Positions 3,949-33,331 of a stretch of DNA of 35,742 nt are shown in pieces (positions within the stretch are counted from its first letter, which is position 1; each line of letters opens with the position of its first letter). The position numbers and the translations under genes were made by a program. The notes beneath the pieces were generated by a model. It was not told where the DNA came from. It did not search any database and saw only the letters and a list, made by a program, of their open reading frames with translations. This DNA is from a virus. Where the stretch lies: positions 1-35,742 of the IMG/VR virus record IMGVR_UViG_3300034631_000069. One strand, given 5' to 3'.

Positions 3949-5900
3949 CAATCCCACCTCGCGAAGGTGGGCGCGGCGCGCATGGCCCGGAACTGCTGGA
4001 CGACTTCGGGGGTCGCCCAGTCGCTCATTTCGTGTTCTCCGCGGCCGAAAGCGGCCCGGGAAAGCTCGTGCGTGATGCGGGCCGTACAGTTATTGAAACC
4101 AGACCAAGCGCGCGGCAGAGCCGCGCGTGCCGGGGCCTCGGCCGGCGCCGGCTGTGCTGCATCGGCCGCATGCTCGGCCACGGCCTCGCCGACCACCGGG
4201 GACCAGACGATGCGGCGCGACACCAGCCACCGGCCGCACATGCGGCCCTGCTGGGCCTGCAGGCCGACGATGCGGCCCACGGTGATGGGCTCGGCGTATT
4301 TGTTGACCTGGCCTTCTTGCGGCGTGCGGTGCGCGGTGCGCAGGTGCCAGCGGTCGCGGCGCAGGGCGTGGCCGCCCATCGACTCCATGAAGATGCGCCA
4401 GTCCGCCCGAATGTCGCCGCGGCGGTGGCACGCGTGGAAGGCGCGGACCGTGGCCCGGTCGCCCTCGCGCGCGAACAGTTCCAGCTGATCGGGCGTCACG
4501 CGGCGCAGCTCACGCCAGACGGTGACGGACGGCATGCCGATGGTCTGGAATTGGCGGATGCCCCAGGTGGCAGCCCATGCGTCCACGCGGCGGAAGCCCA
4601 CGCCGGTTTCCTTCACATCGGGCTTTCCGGGCTTGGCGTCCGCGCCGAAGTCCAGGCTGATCTGCTGGCCGTCCACCACGTCGCGGTGCTCGGCGAGGGC
4701 GAGGTGGCCGACGCTCTTGGCGATGTACTTGGCGACGTAGCCGGCCGCGCCGCCGGCCGTCATGCGCTTGATGTTGACGCGGTTGGCAACGGCGCCGCGC
4801 TCCCCGCCGTCGTCGCTCAGCCAGTAGTGGCGGATGCGTTCCTCGATCGCCTGCGCGCCGGCCTCGTCCTCGGCCCATATGAGGGCATGCCAGTGGGGCG
4901 TGGCGTCGTGGTGCGGCTCTGCCACGCGCAGGCCGTACATGCGCACGCCGCGGCGTGCCAGGGCGGCGCGGGTCTTGCCCCACATGTCGCGCAGCCACAG
5001 CTGGCCATCACGCGGGGTGCTGCCGTCGTGGTTGCGGTTGGGGAACGGCCGGCCACCGCTGCCCAGCTTCATGGCGTGGTACCGGCTGGGCAATGTGAGC
5101 GTGACGAACAGGCCGACATGGCCGCGCGAGTCCGCATATTCCTCTGCGCCGCGGATGCGCGTCATCAGCTCGCCGCCGCGGATGATCGGGTTGGCAGTGC
5201 CCAGCTCGGCGAGGTCGCGCAGCGTGTAGACCTGGCCGGCCTCATTGCGATAGAGCGTGCGGCCCAGGGCTTCGGCGTTGCGCTTGATCTGCGCTTCCCG
5301 GCGCAGCAGGCCGTCGCCGCTGACGTAGCCGCCCGCGGCCTTGTGCACGAGGCCTAGACCCACGGCGCCGGCTTCCACCACGCGCGCAACGTGCACGCGC
5401 AGGCGGCGGCGCCACCATGCGGCATCCTGCGCGCGTAGGATGGCGGGCAGGCCTTGAATGGGTTTGTCTTCGGTGATGCCTGCGCAGCGAACCAACATGC
5501 GGATGGAATCCACACGGGCGGCCAGTTCGTCGCCGCGGCCGATGGCCAGGGCGTCGAGTTCTTCGGCCTCGGCGGCCAGCTTCTTGGCCATGGCGCATAT
5601 GTCGGCGTCCGGCAGGTTCCAGAGCGAGGCGGCGCCGTAGGCATCTTCGAAATCGGCGATGGACTGCATCAAGTCCCACGCCAACGCCCAATCCGGCGGG
5701 CTGGCCAGATACTCTTCCGGCGACTGCGGCGCGGTGGGTGTCGACTGCGGCGCGAAGCGGGAGCGGACCGCCGCCTGCCAGCTGGCGGGCGCGCACTTGA
5801 TGACCCGTTCCATGTGGCACCCCGCGGCGTACAGGGTGGGCTTGTTTTTCTCCCAGTCCGCCAGGCTGGCATTAGGTAGCTTGCGCAGGATGCGGGCCAT
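3948..5900 (-). CDS. A: P2 GpA-type replication initiator (HUH endonuclease)
   Basis: 650 residues. It nicks the phage origin on one strand and stays covalently attached to start rolling-circle replication. The HUH active site is visible in order: motif 1 'GLFVTLTLPS' (about 263-272), the metal-binding PHWHALIW with His336 and His338, and the catalytic pair in GYVAKYIAKS, Tyr388 and Tyr392, with the Y-x3-Y spacing of the two-tyrosine GpA family. A long N-terminal region (about 1-240) is the family-specific domain. In P2 the origin lies inside gene A; I could not locate the nick site here. It begins 3 bases after the upstream gene's stop and is co-transcribed with it. This is the central replication gene of the phage. 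Confidence 0.95.
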   Translation of the reverse strand: MARILRKLPNASLADWEKNKPTLYAAGCHMERVIKCAPASWQAAVRSRFAPQSTPTAPQSPEEYLASPPDWALAWDLMQSIADFEDAYGAASLWNLPDADICAMAKKLAAEAEELDALAIGRGDELAARVDSIRMLVRCAGITEDKPIQGLPAILRAQDAAWWRRRLRVHVARVVEAGAVGLGLVHKAAGGYVSGDGLLRREAQIKRNAEALGRTLYRNEAGQVYTLRDLAELGTANPIIRGGELMTRIRGAEEYADSRGHVGLFVTLTLPSRYHAMKLGSGGRPFPNRNHDGSTPRDGQLWLRDMWGKTRAALARRGVRMYGLRVAEPHHDATPHWHALIWAEDEAGAQAIEERIRHYWLSDDGGERGAVANRVNIKRMTAGGAAGYVAKYIAKSVGHLALAEHRDVVDGQQISLDFGADAKPGKPDVKETGVGFRRVDAWAATWGIRQFQTIGMPSVTVWRELRRVTPDQLELFAREGDRATVRAFHACHRRGDIRADWRIFMESMGGHALRRDRWHLRTAHRTPQEGQVNKYAEPITVGRIVGLQAQQGRMCGRWLVSRRIVWSPVVGEAVAEHAADAAQPAPAEAPARAALPRAWSGFNNCTARITHELSRAAFGRGEHEMSDWATPEVVQQFRAMRAAPTFARWD

Positions 5901-7079: not shown

Positions 7080-7391
7080 CTACGACGTGCCGCGGGGCCC
7101 GGCGAAGAGGTCGCCTGTGGTTGGCGCGGTGTACTGCGGCTGGTGGGCCGATTCGGCGGCGTGGTCGAGGACGATGCGCACCATGTCGCGGTTCACATGC
7201 GAGGACAGCGGGATGTTGACGGTGGGGTCTGGCGTGGCGCTCGGGCTCAGGGTACGGAGCACTTCGGTGGCGGCGACGAAGGTGTGGCCGCACTCGACAT
7301 TCGTGCAGGCGTAGATCAGCTCGCGCATCGTCTTGCTGACCACCCGACTGGTGCGGATTTCTGCCTGCGCATCGCAGTGGGGGCACGCCAT
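7080..7391 (-). CDS. ogr: Ogr/Delta-type zinc-finger activator of late transcription
   Basis: 103 residues. Ogr proteins bind upstream of phage late promoters and recruit host RNA polymerase through its alpha subunit. The zinc-binding pattern is intact: Cys3-x2-Cys6-x22-Cys29-x4-Cys34, with 'RTSR' after the first pair and 'ECGHTFVA' at the second, exactly the P2 Ogr arrangement. The C-terminus is longer than in P2 Ogr (about 72 residues), with an added tail of roughly 40 residues. The ATG at 7391 has a GAGGG ribosome-binding sequence. In P2, ogr lies beyond gene D at the late end; here it lies in the early operon near the repressor. Its likely targets are the three late promoter elements annotated below. 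A small hairpin (CCGCTG/CAGCGG, 7048-7064) follows the gene. Confidence 0.88.
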   Translation of the reverse strand: MACPHCDAQAEIRTSRVVSKTMRELIYACTNVECGHTFVAATEVLRTLSPSATPDPTVNIPLSSHVNRDMVRIVLDHAAESAHQPQYTAPTTGDLFAGPRGTS

Positions 7392-10298: not shown

Positions 10299-11344
10299 CC
10301 ATGCAGCCGGCGCTTTCGCAGCACGTGCGCGCGCTTCTTGGGCACTCCGCCGCGGCGCTCCATCTCCAGCCGCGTGGCCAGGCCTTCACCCTCGATGAAG
10401 TGCTCGACGGTCTTGCATAGCCAGTCCGTGCCGTCGATTTCTTCTTTCCAGCCCTCGACGTAGACGGGCGTCTGCGGGGCCAGCGCGGGCTGGCCTATCG
10501 CCAGCTGCAGTTCGAAGGTGGCCCCGCCGCGCTGGATGCGGCCTTGTTCTGCGCGCGCGGCGGCCAACGCGTCGGCCTCGGTGGCGTAGCTGTCCCGCAG
10601 CGTCTTCACGTTGCTTTCCTCGCCCGCGATCGCGGCGCGCTTGCTGGCGCTACCCGCGTCGTGCCAGTAGGCGCGCACGCCGGTGTAGCTGTCACGCGCC
10701 GCGGTGTGGTAGCGGTGGCGGTCGCCCTTGCTGCGGGTGATGGTGACGGCCTCGATTTCCTTTCCTGCGGCGTTCTTGGTGCTGCCCAGGGGGAGGAACA
10801 CCAGCCGGCCTTTCTTAACCGTAGCCACGGCGTCGTGCTGGCGGCCCAGGCGCGTGAGGAAGTGCACGTCCGATTCGTTGGTCTGGTCGATGTGCTGCAC
10901 GACGATGGCGGCCAGCGCCTCGTCCACCTTGGCAGTGAGCTTATTCCGCGCCGCGATGTCTCGCACGATGGTGCCGAGCGTGGCGCCGTGCCACGACTGG
11001 CTGGCGCGCTGGCGCAATGTGCTGCGCAGCTCGGCGGAGCGGCAGCGGAGGGAAACGGAGTCCGGCGCGCCGCTGTGCTCGATCTCGTCCACCGTGAACG
11101 TGCCCTTGTCCACCATGCCGGTGTGCGCGTAGCCGAGCTGTAGGGCGATGACGGCGCCCACGGGGGGCAACGCCAGATCGCCGCGGGAGTCGTCCAGCTC
11201 GATGTCGAGCTGGTCGGCTTTCTCCCCGCGGCTCTCGCGCAGGCGCAGGCGCTTGAGGCGCGGCCGCACGGCCTGGGAAACGTCCTTTCCGTTGATGATG
11301 AGGGTGTAGCGCACCTGGCGGTAGACGGCGGTGCTTTCGGTCAT
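10295..11344 (-). CDS. D: Late control/tail protein GpD (baseplate hub)
   Basis: 349 residues (P2 D is somewhat longer). GpD is the P2 gp27-like baseplate hub component. The sequence has the typical N-terminal beta domain (VRYTLIINGKDVSQAVRPRLKRLRLRES; LDIELDDSRGDLALPP), an alpha/beta region (ATLGTIVRDIAARNKLTAKVDEALAAI) and the 'IDQTNESDVHFLTRLGRQHDAVATVKKGRLVFLP' segment that is highly characteristic of this family. The start ATG at 11344 overlaps the U stop (ATGA). It ends in a basic tail (RRGGVPKKRAHVLRKRR). It is the last gene of the F-D tail operon, converging on the plus-strand accessory genes. Confidence 0.93.
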   Translation of the reverse strand: MTESTAVYRQVRYTLIINGKDVSQAVRPRLKRLRLRESRGEKADQLDIELDDSRGDLALPPVGAVIALQLGYAHTGMVDKGTFTVDEIEHSGAPDSVSLRCRSAELRSTLRQRASQSWHGATLGTIVRDIAARNKLTAKVDEALAAIVVQHIDQTNESDVHFLTRLGRQHDAVATVKKGRLVFLPLGSTKNAAGKEIEAVTITRSKGDRHRYHTAARDSYTGVRAYWHDAGSASKRAAIAGEESNVKTLRDSYATEADALAAARAEQGRIQRGGATFELQLAIGQPALAPQTPVYVEGWKEEIDGTDWLCKTVEHFIEGEGLATRLEMERRGGVPKKRAHVLRKRRLHG

Positions 11345-14738: not shown

Positions 14739-15211
14739 TTACCGCTCGGGTGGATGCAGTGCCTTGTGCCGCTCCACGGCGAGCTGCCGCCACTGCATCA
14801 GTTCAGCCAGGGACATGGCGTCCATCGTGGCCGGTGGCCAGTGCAGGAGGATGGCCACATCGGCCATCACCGCCTCTACGTGCTCAGGGATTCCATCGCC
14901 GACTTCGGCGCCAAAAAAGCAGCCACCTCGATGGAGAGGGCCACGAGGTCGGCGGGGTCCAGGTCTTCCACCTCGGCCGCGATGAGCGTGGGCACCGTGA
15001 TGCGGGGCAGCAGCTTGGCGATCACCTCCACCTTCATCTGGAGGATCTCCGCGAGCAGCAGGCCGCGCATATCGCCGACGCGGGGGCGCATGACCTGCAG
15101 CGTGGTGATGGTTTCAGCTTTCCGGACGATGGGAGTCTGCAGATCGACGGCAACGGTGGGGCGCCCTGCGGCTTGGGCAGGCGCGGTGCTGGTGGTCTTC
15201 TCGGTGGTCAT
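14739..15211 (-). CDS. E': E+E' fusion made by -1 ribosomal frameshift (tail assembly chaperone)
   Basis: A tail-assembly pair expressed by programmed frameshift, as in P2. Zero-frame gene E runs 15211-14876. At 14918-14912 the minus strand reads T-TTT-TTG, where slipping back one base enters a second frame that stays open to a TAA at 14739. The fusion is about 157 residues: 100 from E plus 57 from the other frame. The second-frame part contains MADVAILLHWPPATMDAMSL and AELMQWRQLAVERH, the hallmark of the GpE small-protein family. It may also be translated separately from the ATG at 14867 (42 residues). The arrangement and slippery heptamer match the P2 E/E' system. Confidence 0.85.
14876..15211 (-). 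CDS. E: Tail assembly protein GpE (zero-frame product)
   Basis: 111 residues (P2 E about 91). GpE is the chaperone that helps load tail-tube monomers around the tape-measure protein. The family features 'VDLQTPIVRKAETITTLQVMRPRVGDMRGLLLAEI' and 'LLPRITVPTLIAAEVEDLDPADLVALSIEVAAFL' are both visible, the latter ending at the slippery sequence. The N-terminus is a Thr/Ala-rich spacer. It lies 98 bases after FII, and a strong hairpin lies between them. Its 3' portion is also read in the fusion E+E' annotated separately. Confidence 0.92.
   Translation of the reverse strand: MTTEKTTSTAPAQAAGRPTVAVDLQTPIVRKAETITTLQVMRPRVGDMRGLLLAEILQMKVEVIAKLLPRITVPTLIAAEVEDLDPADLVALSIEVAAFLAPKSAMESLST
14912..14918 (-). 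promoter_or_regulatory. Slippery heptamer T-TTT-TTG for -1 frameshift
   Basis: Seven bases of the minus strand (T6 then G) are in the phase needed for a tandem -1 slip: zero-frame codons TTT TTG, new frame TTT TTT, then GGC. P2's frameshift between E and E' uses the same T6G type of site. The 58 codons that follow in the new frame, including a stop, encode a known family, which confirms the use of this site. Confidence 0.82.
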
Positions 15212-17053: not shown

Positions 17054-17085
17054 GGGGTGGAGCCCTTGAAACGGTGTTGGCTCCA

Positions 17086-17143
17086 ATGTGCCGCCGGGCT
17101 CGCGCGAAGGCCAGCAGGTGCTGCTGTGGGGGGCGCGGGGAGA
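17086..17143 (-). promoter_or_regulatory. Candidate Ogr-dependent late promoter upstream of FI
   Basis: On the minus strand a TCT-N13-ACA dyad (17125-17143; one base from the TGT-N13-ACA seen at O and V) is followed by CACAGC, then 33 bases, then ACAT (17086-17089). Around CAGCAG..CTGCTGGC the sequence is nearly identical to the V site. If ACAT is the -10 core, transcription starts near 17079, leaving a leader of about 26 bases before the FI ATG. Confidence 0.6.
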
Positions 17144-17169
17144 AAAAGAAAGGCCCGCGCGCGGCGGGC
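17142..17169 (-). terminator. Intrinsic terminator of the fibre/baseplate operon
   Basis: On the minus strand a GCCCGC stem with a five-base GCGCG loop and GCGGGC closing stem (17153-17169) is followed by CTTTCTTTTTCT. This ends the operon running V to the fibre-assembly-like gene (ending 17192) and separates it from the FI promoter that begins a few bases on. Confidence 0.75.
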
Positions 17170-18941: not shown

Positions 18942-21900
18942 TCACAGCGTGGCGCCGCGCAGGTTGCGCACGTAGGGGCGGGCCGTGGTGCTGCCGGTGA
19001 GGGTCAGCCGCACGCGGACGGCCGCGGCCTGCAGTCCGGACAGCTCGCAGGTGATTTCCCGCACGCCCCGGGTGTTGGCGGACGCGGAGAGGTACGGCAC
19101 CAGCACCCACGGAGCGCCGTCGTAGGCGGCCTGGGCGTGCACCTGCACCGCCGCGCCGCCAGGGATGTCGCCCTCATAGACGACGCGCAGGCGGCTCGCG
19201 CCCGTCGCGTTCACTGTGCGCGATACGTATGTGGCCGCTTCCTCGATGTGGCCGGCGATGAGCTGCACGCCGTTCTGCATCACCGCGGCCAGCTTCGCGT
19301 CCCCGGTGATGCGCGCGCGCACCTTGAGGCGGCCGGTGAACGGGGCGGCGAGCCAGACGATTTGCCCATCGTTGAGGCGCACCACCTCGCTCTTCATGGA
19401 CTCCGGGAACTGCACCTCGAACACCACACCGGATGCCGCCGATGGACGCTCCGCGAAGCCCAGCACCATCAAGTCGGTCATGCCCACCACGTCGGCCGTG
19501 CCGAGGTCGATTACCCGTTCGCTCGCGGTGTAGCTGGCCGCGAGCAGCTGGAACCACTGGTCTACGTCCTGGTGCACGGTCCATGCGCTGTTGTTCGACG
19601 AGGTGGAGAACACGCCCACCTGGTAGGGCTGCGCCACAACGTAGCCGCGCTGGGGGTCTTGCTTGCCCAGCTCGGCTACCGCGATGGCGGTCTGCGCTTC
19701 GTCGCACAGCGTCACGATGCAGTATTCCCGGCCGGCAAGCAACAGGGCCGGCGTCCACGTGATGGTGGTGGGCGCGTCGATCTGGATGCCGGCCTTGGGC
19801 ACCCGGGCTTCGGCGACGACTGCGGGCGTCGGCACTCCGGCAGCGGCCTCGCGGATCTGCACCGTGACCGGGCCGCCCGCTGCCGTGAACAGCAGGCGCA
19901 CGCCGCTGCACTGGGTGTCCTCGTCCAGCACGAAGGACTGGGCCGAGGGGTCGAAATAGCCGTCGTACAGCCACCGCGCGCAGGCCGAAGTGTTCTGCGG
20001 CGCGGTGGTGCCGCTGCTCGCCGGGCCCCACACAGCGCCGCCGCCCGTGCTGATTGGGGTGTAGACCGGGATGCTCGGCCCGGGGCCCCACACGGCGCCG
20101 CCGCCGCTGGATGCCTCGGGCTGCGGTACAGGCTTGTTCCAGCGGGAATAGCTTTCGGTGACCACGTTTTGCTGCGACCGCAGGATGTTCGTTCCCTGCC
20201 CGTAGAAGGTCTGCGACCCGCGGCTGCCCAGCGGCCCACGGAAAACCACGGCCTTTGCACCCGCCGTGACCTTCTCGGGCACGGTGAAGGTGCCAGACAG
20301 CTTGCCGGCGGCGTCGCCCTTCAACGTGCCGCCCTCGATCGGCTGCGCTGCGACGGCGATACCGTCGAAGGTAATGGACTGGAGCCCTTCACCCGGCCCC
20401 CATCCCGAGATGTCGAAGCGCACCGCGATGGATCGCAAGTATTCGATGGGGCGCGACTCTTCGGACAGCGTGCGCACTGCGGTCGCCGTCGCCGTGAGCG
20501 TGCTTTCGCTGCCTGCGCCGGTGTAGAGGCGTTCCGTGATGGCCGATTGCCACGTCGTGTCAACGGTAGTCCAGCGGTCCACGTTCGGCGCCAGCGCGAT
20601 GGCGGCCGGCACCGGGTCGAATGCCATGTAGGGGTTCACCTGCCGCGATCCAGTGCGCCAAGTCTGCTCCAACACCACGCGGTGGGTGTGCTCGATGGGC
20701 ATCCGCTCGGGAAGTGCGGTGCCGAGCTGGTGCACAGTCGTGGTGATGGGGAGCTGCAGCGCGCCGTTCACGATCGCGCCGGTCTGCGCGATGCCGGCAT
20801 CGCGCTGCCGGTCGGTCAGGAAGGGGTCCGCGATCAGGCCTTTCTTGATCCCCGAGTCCATGCCCTGCGCGCTGGTGGCCAGGCGCAGCTCCGCAAGGTC
20901 GATCATCACGGCGTCCATCCGTTGTTCCTGCAGCGCGATGCGGTGCGGTGACTGGATCTTCACGCCGTCGCTGACCACCTGCCGGCCGCCGTCCCAGGTC
21001 TGAAAGACGCTGGCAAGCGCGAGCATGTCGTCGGGCACCTGCGGCGGCGCGGGGGTCCAGGCGCTGGACACACCGCGCAGCCACTCGAAGGCCCCTTCGC
21101 GGTTGATGCAGAGGCGGTCCACGCGGCGCAGCTGCTGCTTGTAGCTGGTCAGGATCGTGGAGTCCTTGATCGCGCCTTCCACCGTGGCGCCGCGCGGGTC
21201 GGCGGCGGTGGCCTCGGCGCGCTTGATGTAGAGGTACGTCACCAGGTACGACGAACCGGGCGCGGGCTCTGCGCCCTGCGGGCTCCAGTCCACTTGCCCG
21301 GCGGTGAGGCGGTAGTCCGCGTCCTTCGCGAAGTTGGTGCTGCCCTGCTTCACGGCCTCGATGGAAATCACGCTGGCATCGGGGAGCACGTCGGCCACGC
21401 CGGAGTAGCCGCCGTGCACGATCGTGACCGTGCGGCGCGCGGTGATGCGGAATTCCGGCACGCCCTTGCACGGTGGACGGCCGATGTCGATTCGTTGCGG
21501 GCCTTCGGTGGTAGACAGGTGCGGTTCGCTGTCCACCGCGAACAGCTCGGGCGTGGCCAGGGTGACGAGGCGCCGCCCGGCCTGGAAGATGCGGCTGCGG
21601 CCGGCGACGCGGGCGGCCCCTTCGGCCACGGTGTAGACCTGCTCGCCCGTGGGCAGGTCGGGCGCCATGGCAACCTGCAGGCCCTCCACGATGTAGGAGC
21701 CGCCGCCGGTGCTGGCCACATCGTAGTCCTCGATCGCGCGGGTGATGGCGGATAGGTGCGGGGGCGCGGCCTTCGCGCGCAGCACGCCGTCTTCCACGAC
21801 GTAGACCCCGAAGAATGTGCCGGCCTGGCCGTCGCCCTGGAACCCCCAGGCGGTGCTGACTTCGCGGCGCGCGGCGCCGGGCTTTTTGTAGCTGGGCGTA

Positions 21901-24915: not shown

Positions 24916-25508
24916 CGAAGCGGCTCCTGCGTCGGGTCGGTGCCGCGGCGCACGCCGCCATGGACGTGGTGCACGGCGCTGACGCCCTCCGCGTGAATGT
25001 CCACGGTGCTGGTGATGCCGTCCGGGCCGATGTGCAGCACGGCACCGGCCACCTGCAGGGTGATGCCGTCCGGTCCCATGGCGATGCGGCAACCGTCGCC
25101 GGCCTCCAGCACGATGGCGCGTTCCGTCCGGATGGTGAGCTGCTCGCGGCGGTATTCGGCGAAGGCGTCGGCCGTCCACTGCGTGCGGTTTACGCCGGGC
25201 TCTTGGGCGGGTGCCGGCATGGCGTCGCTGTATGTGCCGAGCATGACGACGCCCTGCGCGAGGTCGCCGCCGGGAGCGAGCACCACGCACTGCTCGCCGG
25301 GCTCTGGCGGCCACCAGCAGCTGCCGCGGCTGCCCGCGGCGCGGCCGGCGATCCAGGGGAGCCAGTCGGTGGTGTTGTCGCCCAGGCGCACGCGGCAGCG
25401 TGGGCGGCCCGAGTGCCGCACCTCGGTGATGGTGCCGACACGCGCGAGGTTTTCTAGCCGGCGGATGGTTTCCTGCGGGCTGTCTTGCTGTGGCGTGTCG
25501 TAGTGCAT
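24912..25508 (-). CDS. V: Baseplate spike protein GpV
   Basis: 198 residues (P2 V 211). The membrane-piercing spike at the tail tip. The OB-like N-terminal domain is visible as 'VGTITEVRHSGRPRCRVRLGDNTTDWLPWIAGRAAGSRGSCWWPPEPGEQCVVLAPGGDLAQGVVMLG', and the C-terminal triple-stranded beta helix as 'IVLEAGDGCRIAMGPDGITLQVAGAVLHIGPDGI'. It ends with HHVHGGVRRGTDPT: a HxH pair that could bind the apical iron. The ATG at 25508 was chosen for alignment with the family; the promoter found upstream leaves almost no leader. Confidence 0.94.
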   Translation of the reverse strand: MHYDTPQQDSPQETIRRLENLARVGTITEVRHSGRPRCRVRLGDNTTDWLPWIAGRAAGSRGSCWWPPEPGEQCVVLAPGGDLAQGVVMLGTYSDAMPAPAQEPGVNRTQWTADAFAEYRREQLTIRTERAIVLEAGDGCRIAMGPDGITLQVAGAVLHIGPDGITSTVDIHAEGVSAVHHVHGGVRRGTDPTQEPLR

Positions 25509-25515
25509 GCCCTGG

Positions 25516-25574
25516 ATGTTGCTGCCGCGCGCGCGCGGAAGCCAGCAGGGCCTGCTGTGGGGAAGCGGGTCACA
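25516..25574 (-). promoter_or_regulatory. Candidate Ogr-dependent late promoter upstream of V
   Basis: On the minus strand TGT-N13-ACA (25556-25574) is followed by CAGC, 34 bases, and ACAT (25516-25519). A CAGCAGG/CCTGCTG palindrome (25543-25557) abuts the dyad and is almost the same as at FI. If ACAT is the -10 core, transcription would start at or within a base or two of the V ATG, giving a leaderless message. Confidence 0.6.
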
Positions 25575-31385: not shown

Positions 31386-31483
31386 ATGTTCCGCACCCGG
31401 GCCTTGCGGCGCAATTTGCGCGCGCTGTGGGGGGGCGAAGCACACTTCGCCGCGCGTGCTTTCCGCGCGCGCGCGAAACACAC
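31386..31483. promoter_or_regulatory. Divergent candidate late promoters for O and P sharing one dyad
   Basis: A TGT-N13-ACA dyad (31426-31444), with an inner GGCGAAG-CACA-CTTCGCC palindrome (31434-31451), lies midway between O and P. On the minus strand CACAGC is followed 34 bases on by ACAT (31386-31389), leaving a leader of about 29 bases to O. On the plus strand ACAC lies at the matching distance (31480-31483), leaving only a few bases to P. Another palindrome GCGCAATTTGCGC lies at 31409-31421. Confidence 0.62.
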
Positions 31484-31492
31484 TGCCCAGGC

Positions 31493-33331
31493 ATGACCGA
31501 AGCAGCAGCCACGCCCACCACCAGCGCCCCCCGCCGCCCGAGGAAGCGGCCCAGCGCGAGCGCGGCGACCCAGCTCACCGACTCCATCGACGGCGGCGCG
31601 AGCAAACGCCGTGACGCGCGCACGCTGTTCTGGAGCGGCTGGAAACTCACGCACATCTCGGAGCACCTCGGCGTTCCGCGCGCCACCCTGCACGGCTGGC
31701 ACAAGGCGGAGAAATGGGCGGAGGCATCGCCCGCGCAGCGCGTCGAAGGCGCACTGGAAGTTCGCCTGGCCACGTTGATCGCGAAGGACTGCAAGACGGG
31801 CGGCGACTACAAGGAAATCGACTTGCTGGGCCGGCAGCTGGAGCGGCTTGCGCGCATTGGCAAGTACCAGCAGACGGGCCGCGAAGTGGATCTGAATCCC
31901 GCGATCGCGTCGCGCAACGCGAGCCCCAAGAAGCCGCCGGTAAAGAACTTCCTTTCCCCGGAACAGGTGCAGCAGCTCAAGTCCGCCTTCTTGGACTCGC
32001 TATTCGACTATCAGCGGGTGTGGTGGGACGAGCGCGATCAGCGCACGCGCGCGATCCTGAAAAGCCGGCAGATCGGAGCGACGTGGTATTTCGCTCGCGA
32101 AGCGTTGATTGATGCGCTGGAGACCGGCCGGAATCAGATCTTCCTGTCAGCCAGCAAGGCGCAGGCGTACATCTTCCGGCAGTACATCCGCGCGTTCGTT
32201 TTTCAGGTTCTGGGCGTCGAATTGAAGGGCGACCCCATCGTGCTGGCCAATGGCGCCGAGCTGTACTTTCTCGGGAGCAACGCGCGCACGGCACAGGGCT
32301 ACCACGGCAATTTCTACTTCGACGAGTTCTTCTGGGCCCAGGATTTCGAGCGGCTCAATACGGTGGCCAGCGGCATGGCCATGCACAAGAAGTGGCGCAA
32401 GACCTACTTCAGCACGCCCAGCAGCGTCCAGCACCCGGCCTACGCATTCTGGTCCGGCGAGCGGATCAAGAAGAAGACGAAGGTGGAGGTAGACATCACC
32501 CACGGGCGGCTGGCTGGAGGTTTCACCGGCGAGGACCGCGTATGGCGTCACATCGTCAACATCCTTGATGCGCTCGAAGGTGGCTGCAACCTGTTCGACC
32601 TGGAAGAGCTGCGCCTAGAGTATTCCGATGCGGCGTTCGCCAACCTGCTCATGTGCGGGTTCGTGGACGACTCGTTTTCCGTCTTCCCGCTCTCGATGCT
32701 GCAGCCCTGCATGGTCGATAGCTGGGAGGTCTGGAGCGACTTCAAGCCATTCAGCGAGCGTCCCTTCGGCTGGTCCCCGGTGTGGGTGGGGTATGACCCA
32801 TCGCACACCGGCGACAGCGCCGGCCTCGTGGTGGTCGCGCCGCCCGCTGTGCCCGGCGGCCCGCTTCGTGTGCTGCACACGGAGCAGTTCAAGGGCCAGG
32901 ACTTCGAGGCGCAAGCCAAAGCGATCAAGGCCATCACCGAACGCTACAACGTCGCCGCTATCACGGTGGATACCACCGGCATCGGCCAGGGCGTTTTCCA
33001 GCTGGTGCAGAAGTTCTTCCCGGCCGCGCGCGGCATCAATTACAGCGTCGAGAGCAAGACCATGTTGGTGCTCAAGGCGCAGCAAGTCATCAACGCCGGC
33101 CGGCTGCAGTTCGACGCCGGGAACCGCGACTTGGCCGTGAGCTTCATGGCCATCAAGCGCGAGCTGACGGCGAGCGGTCGCAGCGTGACCTATGCCGCGG
33201 GCCGAAGCGAAGACGCGGGGCATGCCGACCTGGCATGGGCCTGCATGAATGCGCTGTCGAACGAGCCGCTCGACGTGGGCACCGGCCTGGCCAACGTGCA
33301 GGGCCAATCCTTCCTTGAAATCTCCGAATGA
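31493..33331 (+). CDS. P: Terminase large (ATPase) subunit GpP
   Basis: 612 residues (P2 P about 590). Cuts and pumps DNA into the head. An N-terminal helix-turn-helix (WKLTHISEHLGVPRATLHGWHKAEKW, about 49-75) probably recognises DNA. The ATPase motor has the deviant Walker A KSRQIGAT (about 190-197), coupling segment 'QAYIFRQYIRAFVFQ' and Walker B FYFDEFF (about 274-280). The nuclease domain shows YDPSHTG, ITVDTTGIGQG and HADLAWACMNAL. Reads into Q with a four-base overlap. The promoter leaves nearly no leader; the short sequence CCCAGGCATG around the start resembles that at V. Confidence 0.96.
   Translation: MTEAAATPTTSAPRRPRKRPSASAATQLTDSIDGGASKRRDARTLFWSGWKLTHISEHLGVPRATLHGWHKAEKWAEASPAQRVEGALEVRLATLIAKDCKTGGDYKEIDLLGRQLERLARIGKYQQTGREVDLNPAIASRNASPKKPPVKNFLSPEQVQQLKSAFLDSLFDYQRVWWDERDQRTRAILKSRQIGATWYFAREALIDALETGRNQIFLSASKAQAYIFRQYIRAFVFQVLGVELKGDPIVLANGAELYFLGSNARTAQGYHGNFYFDEFFWAQDFERLNTVASGMAMHKKWRKTYFSTPSSVQHPAYAFWSGERIKKKTKVEVDITHGRLAGGFTGEDRVWRHIVNILDALEGGCNLFDLEELRLEYSDAAFANLLMCGFVDDSFSVFPLSMLQPCMVDSWEVWSDFKPFSERPFGWSPVWVGYDPSHTGDSAGLVVVAPPAVPGGPLRVLHTEQFKGQDFEAQAKAIKAITERYNVAAITVDTTGIGQGVFQLVQKFFPAARGINYSVESKTMLVLKAQQVINAGRLQFDAGNRDLAVSFMAIKRELTASGRSVTYAAGRSEDAGHADLAWACMNALSNEPLDVGTGLANVQGQSFLEISE

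What the first reader, a model, noticed from the sequence alone, without database searches (positions are those of the whole stretch)
31426..31444. Shared TGT-N13-ACA element with a fixed-distance ACAT at three late operons
Seen: upstream of O/P (31426-31444) and V (25556-25574) there is TGT-N13-ACA, and at FI (17125-17143) the same with one mismatch. In all three, 33-34 bases beyond CACAGC on the minus strand, comes ACAT. From ACAT to the dyad centre is about 47 bases, so with ACAT as -10 core the dyad sits near -55. Known: P2 Ogr binds TGT-N12-ACA centred near -55. Inference: these are the Ogr-dependent late promoters of this phage, with a spacer one base longer.
Basis: partly seen in the sequence, partly recalled or inferred. 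Interest (0 to 1): 0.65.

Follow-up and report, generated by a model that had tools for sequence, protein, structure and literature searches.

The report
Activator-controlled late promoters of P2-like phage
The repeated DNA element is real and marks the switches that turn on the structural genes of a P2-like phage late in infection; it is a member of a known promoter class, although the comparison also shows an exact spacing rule, two operons whose messages should start at the first codon, and an unexplained CG-repeat inside three of the four switches.

Summary
The elements exist at the stated coordinates. TGT-N13-ACA alone is not rare (3 in the window, 3.2 expected). What makes it significant is position and conservation. 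A model trained on relatives' late promoters gives exactly four strong hits in the window: P (+), O, V and FI (scores 28.4, 24.9, 22.6, 15.7; next 3.4). Across relatives N13 is enriched, N12 hardly or not, and the dyad sits about 56 bp before the inferred start. The invariant -10 is not ACAT but A(-11) and T(-7), at one fixed offset in 71 of 76 promoters; at FI the ACAT is one base out of register. A weak -35 (TTG/TGG/GTG) lies 17 bp upstream. V and P start codons fall at the predicted start, so both mRNAs should be (near-)leaderless; P2's mapped V start already is. The window encodes an Ogr/Delta protein. N13 was already reported for Ralstonia phages phiRSA1/phiRSY1: a new member of a known kind. 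Not found described (limited search): the CG-alternating spacer of PV, PP and PF, and the near-leaderless P operon. Ogr binding and transcription starts are inferred.

The parts
31426..31444 (.). Dyad TGT-N13-ACA shared by the divergent promoters PO (-) and PP (+); proposed Ogr site, centre about -56 from both starts
   Evidence: conserved in Acica and Alfacinha; the P2 and 186 records annotate one shared activator site at the same place
31409..31414 (-). PO -35-like element TTGCGC (offsets 12-17)
   Evidence: T12, T13 100% and G14 95% in 19 O-promoter clusters
31386..31391 (-).
   Evidence: A36 95%, A39 89%, T40 95% in 19 clusters; 17-bp spacer to the -35
31456..31461 (+). PP -35-like element GTGCTT
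31464..31475 (+). CG-alternating tract (12 bp) in the PP spacer, one of the two longest in the window
   Evidence: 11/13 P promoters have such a tract, 0.08 expected
31479..31484 (+). PP -10 CACACT; inferred start about 31491, P start codon at 31493, so near-leaderless
25556..25574 (-). Dyad TGT-N13-ACA upstream of V; proposed Ogr site of PV
25539..25544 (-). PV -35-like element TGGCTT
25526..25537 (-). CG-alternating tract (12 bp) in the PV spacer, one of the two longest in the window
   Evidence: 22/26 V promoters outside the enteric and L094-L130 groups, 0.24 expected
25516..25521 (-). PV -10 CAACAT; inferred start 25508-25509, at the V start codon (25506-25508), so leaderless
   Evidence: P2 record puts the V operon start on the A of V's ATG
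17125..17143 (-). Imperfect dyad TCT-N13-ACA upstream of FI; proposed Ogr site of PF
   Evidence: Alfacinha and other relatives have TGT-N13-ACA here
17108..17113 (-). PF -35-like element TGGCCT
17085..17090 (-). PF -10 CACATT; inferred start about 17078, FI start codon 17051-17053
   Evidence: A36 100% and T40 95% in 19 FI clusters
17153..17169 (-). Terminator-like hairpin GCCCGCCGCGCGCGGGC followed by CTTTCTTTTT, just before the FI dyad; probable end of the V operon, its T-run adjoins the degenerate TCT half-site
   Evidence: 186 has terminator t45 just before its B site
7080..7391 (-). ogr: 103-residue Ogr/Delta-like zinc-finger protein, CX2CX22CX4C
   Evidence: PHROG 603, Pfam PF04606 1.7e-19, sequence

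Best explanation
These are the four late promoters (PP, PO, PV, PF) of a P2-like phage. The phage's own Ogr/Delta zinc-finger activator is inferred to bind the TGT-N13-ACA dyad centred about 56 bp upstream of each start and to recruit host sigma70 RNA polymerase to a promoter too weak to work alone: a TTG/TGG/GTG remnant of a -35, a 17-bp spacer, and a -10 reduced to A(-11) and T(-7). One dyad between O and P serves both divergent promoters. At V and P transcription should begin at or 1-2 bases before the start codon, giving (near-)leaderless messages. Shown here: sequence, spacing, conservation, genomic exclusivity and the presence of an Ogr protein. Inferred: binding, activation and exact starts.
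For: Relatives' promoter model finds exactly these four sites (28.4, 24.9, 22.6, 15.7; next 3.4). TGT-Nk-ACA is enriched at k=13: O 19/43 clusters vs 1.15 expected, P 13/42 vs 0.7, V 52/97 vs 1.55, FI 19/84 vs 2.0, against k=12 at 0, 0, 6 and 7. A36..T40 in 71/76 promoters. T12, T13, G14 near-invariant at O. V start codon at offset 46-50 in 50/52 clusters, P at 47-50 in 11/13. P2 and 186 mapped starts and activator sites align. Dyad flanks are more alike between promoters of one phage than between phages (V-FI 7.6 vs 5.6 of 14, none of 5000 permutations as high). Dyad + CG tract + A..T + ATG pattern in the GTDB genome set: 13 hits, all before V (8) or P (5). In IMG/VR the N13 form gives 93 hits (66 V, 25 P, 2 unassigned), the N12 and N14 forms none. 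Ogr protein present.
Against: No binding, footprint or transcript data. TGT-N13-ACA alone is at chance frequency in the window. The FI site has only one intact half (TCT instead of TGT). The phiRSY1 authors state that no sigma70-type promoter is present in such regions. Promoters were selected by an exact N13 match, so conservation of TGT/ACA itself is circular; the -10, -35 and start-codon results are not. The permutation does not control for base composition.
Confidence: 0.93

Rival explanations
1. The dyads are chance matches in GC-rich DNA and the ACAT spacing is coincidence.
For: Three TGT-N13-ACA matches in the window against 3.2 expected.
Against: Four-of-four placement with a large score gap, N13 enrichment across relatives, whole-collection specificity for V and P, and empty N12/N14 controls.
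Confidence: 0.02
2. The dyads are operators of another regulator (a host protein, or the phage repressor or excisionase), not of Ogr.
For: Binding is not shown; no solved relative of this Ogr was found by sequence.
Against: Sites occupy the positions of annotated Ogr (P2) and B (186) sites, occur only at late operons, and their flanks vary from phage to phage but are shared within a phage, as expected for a phage-encoded reader.
Confidence: 0.04
3. The CG-alternating and palindromic spacer is a terminator of the operon upstream rather than a promoter feature.
For: In several enteric relatives the V spacer is a perfect hairpin TGCCGCCGG-N6-CCGGCGGCA, and V lies downstream of the O operon.
Against: P promoters carry the CG tract (11/13) although they diverge from O and have no upstream operon running into them; at FI a separate terminator-like hairpin lies upstream of the dyad.
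Confidence: 0.15

Closest known systems
Phage P2 late promoters PP, PO, PV, PF activated by Ogr
   Same: Four operons, one activator site shared by PO and PP, site centred about 55 bp upstream, leaderless V, position of -10 and T-N-G-C element
   Different: P2-type sites are quoted as TGT-N12-ACA (PMC3931495); here N13. P2's P message has a 23-base leader, here about 2. P2 itself has no long CG-alternating run in these spacers
Phage 186 B-dependent promoters pV, p12, pJ
   Same: Shared site between the O and P homologues; terminator just before the site of the sheath operon; same offset of site and start
   Different: Different half-site sequence; p12 has a leader; no CG tract
Ralstonia phages phiRSA1/phiRSY1 late promoter regions (PMC5694545)
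   Same: TGT-N13-ACA, four late regions, Ogr homologue
   Different: Longer half-sites TGTTGT...ACAACA there; here the halves are AAATGTG/GAAGTGT...CCACAGC. Those authors report no sigma70 promoter; the alignment here shows -35/-10 remnants at fixed spacing
Stenotrophomonas phage Smp131 putative late promoters (PMC3931495)
   Same: TGT-Nx-ACA proposed before late operons of a P2-like phage
   Different: Three of four listed sites are 18 bp (N12) and one 19 bp (N13). They did not appear as exact matches at the printed coordinates in the GenBank sequence I read

Membership tests
Ogr/B/Delta-dependent late promoters of P2-like phages (broad class) | Phage encodes an Ogr/Delta C4 zinc-finger activator | tested here: met
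   PF04606 1.7e-19, CX2CX22CX4C
Ogr/B/Delta-dependent late promoters of P2-like phages (broad class) | TGT...ACA dyad centred near -55 at each late operon | tested here: met
   Intact at O/P and V, one mismatch at FI; centre about -56 from inferred starts
Ogr/B/Delta-dependent late promoters of P2-like phages (broad class) | Sits before the PQ, O-S, V-G and F-D operons, with one site shared by O and P | tested here: met
   PHROG and tblastn assignments of P, O, N, V and FI; model scan
Ogr/B/Delta-dependent late promoters of P2-like phages (broad class) | Transcription from these sites requires Ogr, which binds them | not testable with these tools
   needs transcripts and footprints
P2-type subgroup | 12-base spacer (TGT-N12-ACA) | tested here: not met
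   N13 at every site; N12 form of the whole pattern absent from IMG/VR
phiRSA1/phiRSY1-type sites | 13-base spacer | tested here: met
   motif from PMC5694545
phiRSA1/phiRSY1-type sites | Extended half-sites TGTTGT...ACAACA | tested here: not met
   Window halves are AAATGTG, GAAGTGT and CCACAGC

The most novel reading that the evidence does not exclude
A distinct subclass of activator-dependent late promoter, found in P2-like prophages of Comamonas, Ralstonia, Cupriavidus, Massilia and Stutzerimonas/Pseudomonas as well as in this phage, in which a CG-alternating spacer (8-12 bp) between the -35 and -10 remnants is a functional part of PV, PP and often PF but not PO. It may act as a stiff, hard-to-melt or Z-form-prone segment that makes the promoter silent without Ogr, and it is coupled to (near-)leaderless messages for both the baseplate and the terminase/portal operons.
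Probability: 0.35. Interest if true: 0.5.

Novelty: new member of a known kind. Interest (0 to 1): 0.35.

Why it matters
It gives an exact, searchable description of late promoters in P2-like phages outside the enterics: dyad spacing, -35 and -10 remnants, and start. That allows late operons to be predicted from sequence. The -10 reduced to A(-11) and T(-7), and the CG-alternating spacer that separates PV/PP/PF from PO, are testable features of how a small zinc-finger activator can drive a nearly consensus-free sigma70 promoter. Predicted (near-)leaderless messages for V and P would mean that two structural operons depend on leaderless translation.

Tried and rejected
Counting TGT-N13-ACA in the window alone: uninformative. 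The sigma70 consensus scanner finds nothing at PF, expected for a promoter this weak. A promoter-only model without the dyad still ranks PP first but loses the others among false hits, so the dyad carries most of the information. Inverted repeats in the spacer as a general rule: rejected, since O and the L094-L130 V promoters lack them and the scores at V, P and FI come mainly from CG alternation. Reading ACAT as the conserved element: rejected in favour of A36/T40. Rfam: no match in the window. No solved structure similar to this Ogr by sequence. phiRSA1 and phiCTX were looked up under accessions recalled from memory and not found. The original Julien and Calendar paper is not in the library.

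Full report
What is in the window. The window is a P2-like (Peduoviridae) phage record. PHROG matches identify the sheath (FI), V, S, major capsid (N), scaffold (O), terminase (P), late-control D and an Ogr-type transcriptional regulator. The nearest named phage is Acidovorax phage Acica, 91% identical in DNA over the O/P region, followed by Alfacinha1 and Alfacinha3 at about 75%. The Ogr gene is at 7080-7391 on the minus strand: 103 residues, Pfam PF04606 at 1.7e-19, cysteines in the order CX2CX22CX4C.

Checking the observation. The stated sequences are at the stated places. On its own TGT-N13-ACA is uninformative: three matches against 3.2 expected from shuffles. I therefore tested position and conservation instead.

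Relatives. I collected IMG/VR loci related to P, FI and V of the window, FI of P2 and FI of Burkholderia phage AP3, took the regions upstream of O, P, V and FI, and clustered them so that near-identical copies count once. TGT-Nk-ACA is enriched at k=13: O 19 of 43 clusters against 1.15 expected, P 13 of 42 against 0.7, V 52 of 97 against 1.55, FI 19 of 84 against 2.0. At k=12 the counts are 0, 0, 6 and 7 against about 1 to 2.4 expected. V alone also shows a smaller excess at k=10 (12 against 1.85), which comes at least partly from enteric relatives.

Leave-out scan. A position weight matrix built from 65 clustered promoters of relatives, excluding the window, the Acidovorax phages named above and the enteric and L094-L130 groups, was run over both strands of the window. 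The four best places are P on the + strand (28.4), O (24.9), V (22.6) and FI (15.7); the next is 3.4. P and O use the same dyad from opposite sides. More distant relatives with about 80% identical P proteins remained in the training set.

Anatomy. Count offsets from the last base of ACA as zero. In the 76 promoters outside the enteric and L094-L130 groups, A at 36 with T at 40 occurs in 71; no other offset between 20 and 55 exceeds 13. These are positions -11 and -7 of a sigma70 -10 element if the start is at 47. T at 12 with G at 14 occurs in 37; among O promoters T12 and T13 are invariant and G14 is 95%. The distance from a hexamer at 12-17 to one at 35-40 is 17 bases. In the window the -10 elements are GAACAT (O), CAACAT (V), CACATT (FI) and CACACT (P). 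ACAT itself is at offset 37 in only 11 of 76, and at FI it is one base out of register. The dyad centre is about 56 bases before the start.

Agreement with mapped promoters. The P2 record marks one activator site for pO and pP and gives starts for all four operons; the 186 record marks B sites and the pJ start. Aligned on those starts, the window's inferred promoters show the same layout. P2's V operon starts on the A of V's ATG.

Leaderless messages. In relatives the V start codon lies at offset 46-50 in 50 of 52 clusters and the P start codon at 47-50 in 11 of 13, whereas O and FI starts are scattered, mostly between 60 and 107. V and P messages should therefore be leaderless or nearly so. 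For V this agrees with P2; for P it differs, since P2's P message has a 23-base leader.

CG-alternating spacer. Runs of at least eight alternating C and G within offsets 15-36 occur in 22 of 26 V, 11 of 13 P and 10 of 18 FI promoters of the main group, but in 1 of 19 O promoters and 0 of 24 V promoters of the L094-L130 group; 0.07 to 0.24 were expected from the same contigs. The two longest such runs in the window (12 bases) are those of V and P; the window's own FI spacer has only a six-base run (and sequence). I have no demonstrated function for this tract.

Specificity in whole collections. The dyad plus G14, eight alternating bases, A36..T40 and ATG at 47 was searched in the GTDB genome set (84,980 species): 13 matches, in Cupriavidus, Ralstonia, Stutzerimonas, Pseudomonas, Massilia and Comamonas, 8 before V and 5 before P. 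With ATG at 48 and T at 13, IMG/VR gave 93: 66 before V, 25 before P and 2 unassigned. Of those two, one is cut by the contig end and the other (L400) precedes a CHAP-like protein inserted ahead of FI. The same pattern with N12 or N14 gave none.

One reader per phage. Bases flanking the dyad are more alike between V and FI of one phage than between phages (7.6 of 14 against 5.6; none of 5000 permutations as high). This fits a phage-encoded factor that reads all sites of its own phage, although base composition was not controlled.

What was known. The literature states TGT-N12-ACA for P2 (PMC3931495) and TGTTGT-(X)13-ACAACA for Ralstonia phages phiRSA1 and phiRSY1, with the remark that no sigma70-type promoter is present (PMC5694545). 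The extra base is therefore not new. Within a limited open-access library I found no description of the fixed -35/-10 remnants, the near-leaderless P operon or the CG tract.

Limits. Hosts of IMG/VR contigs were not established, so groups are named by locus numbers. Promoters were selected by an exact dyad match, which makes TGT/ACA conservation circular but not that of the other elements. The whole-collection pattern includes the CG tract and the start codon, so it covers only V/P-type promoters, not PO. Ogr binding and transcription starts are inferences.

Noticed in passing
window 17153-17169 (-): Terminator-like hairpin with a T-run directly before the FI dyad; its tail adjoins the degenerate TCT half-site, as with terminator t45 before the B site in phage 186.
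   Followed up: partly
L094-L130, upstream of V: A second group of loci has long, nearly perfect palindromes CTTGTAGAAA-N-TTTCTACAAG with the same N13 core, CATGGT as -10, and a second copy about 4-9 kb upstream in several loci.
   Followed up: partly
enteric relatives, e.g. L150, L200, L212, L218, L223, upstream of V: The spacer between -35 and -10 of PV is a perfect inverted repeat TGCCGCCGG-N6-CCGGCGGCA; many loci with AT-rich DNA upstream of V lack it.
   Followed up: partly
L400:2904-3611 (-): A CHAP-like protein (weak Pfam match, below cut-off) is inserted between a late promoter with this signature and FI; looks like an extra cargo gene under late control.
   Followed up: no
Smp131 (L308) 4381-4398, 10964-10981, 14928-14946: Published late-promoter coordinates do not coincide with exact TGT-N12/13-ACA matches in the GenBank sequence; one published interval is 19 bp (N13).
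   Followed up: partly
L310 (Burkholderia phage KL3), upstream of V near 21195 (-): TGT-N13-ACA with A36, T40 and ATG at offset 48: the same leaderless layout in a named Burkholderia phage.
   Followed up: no
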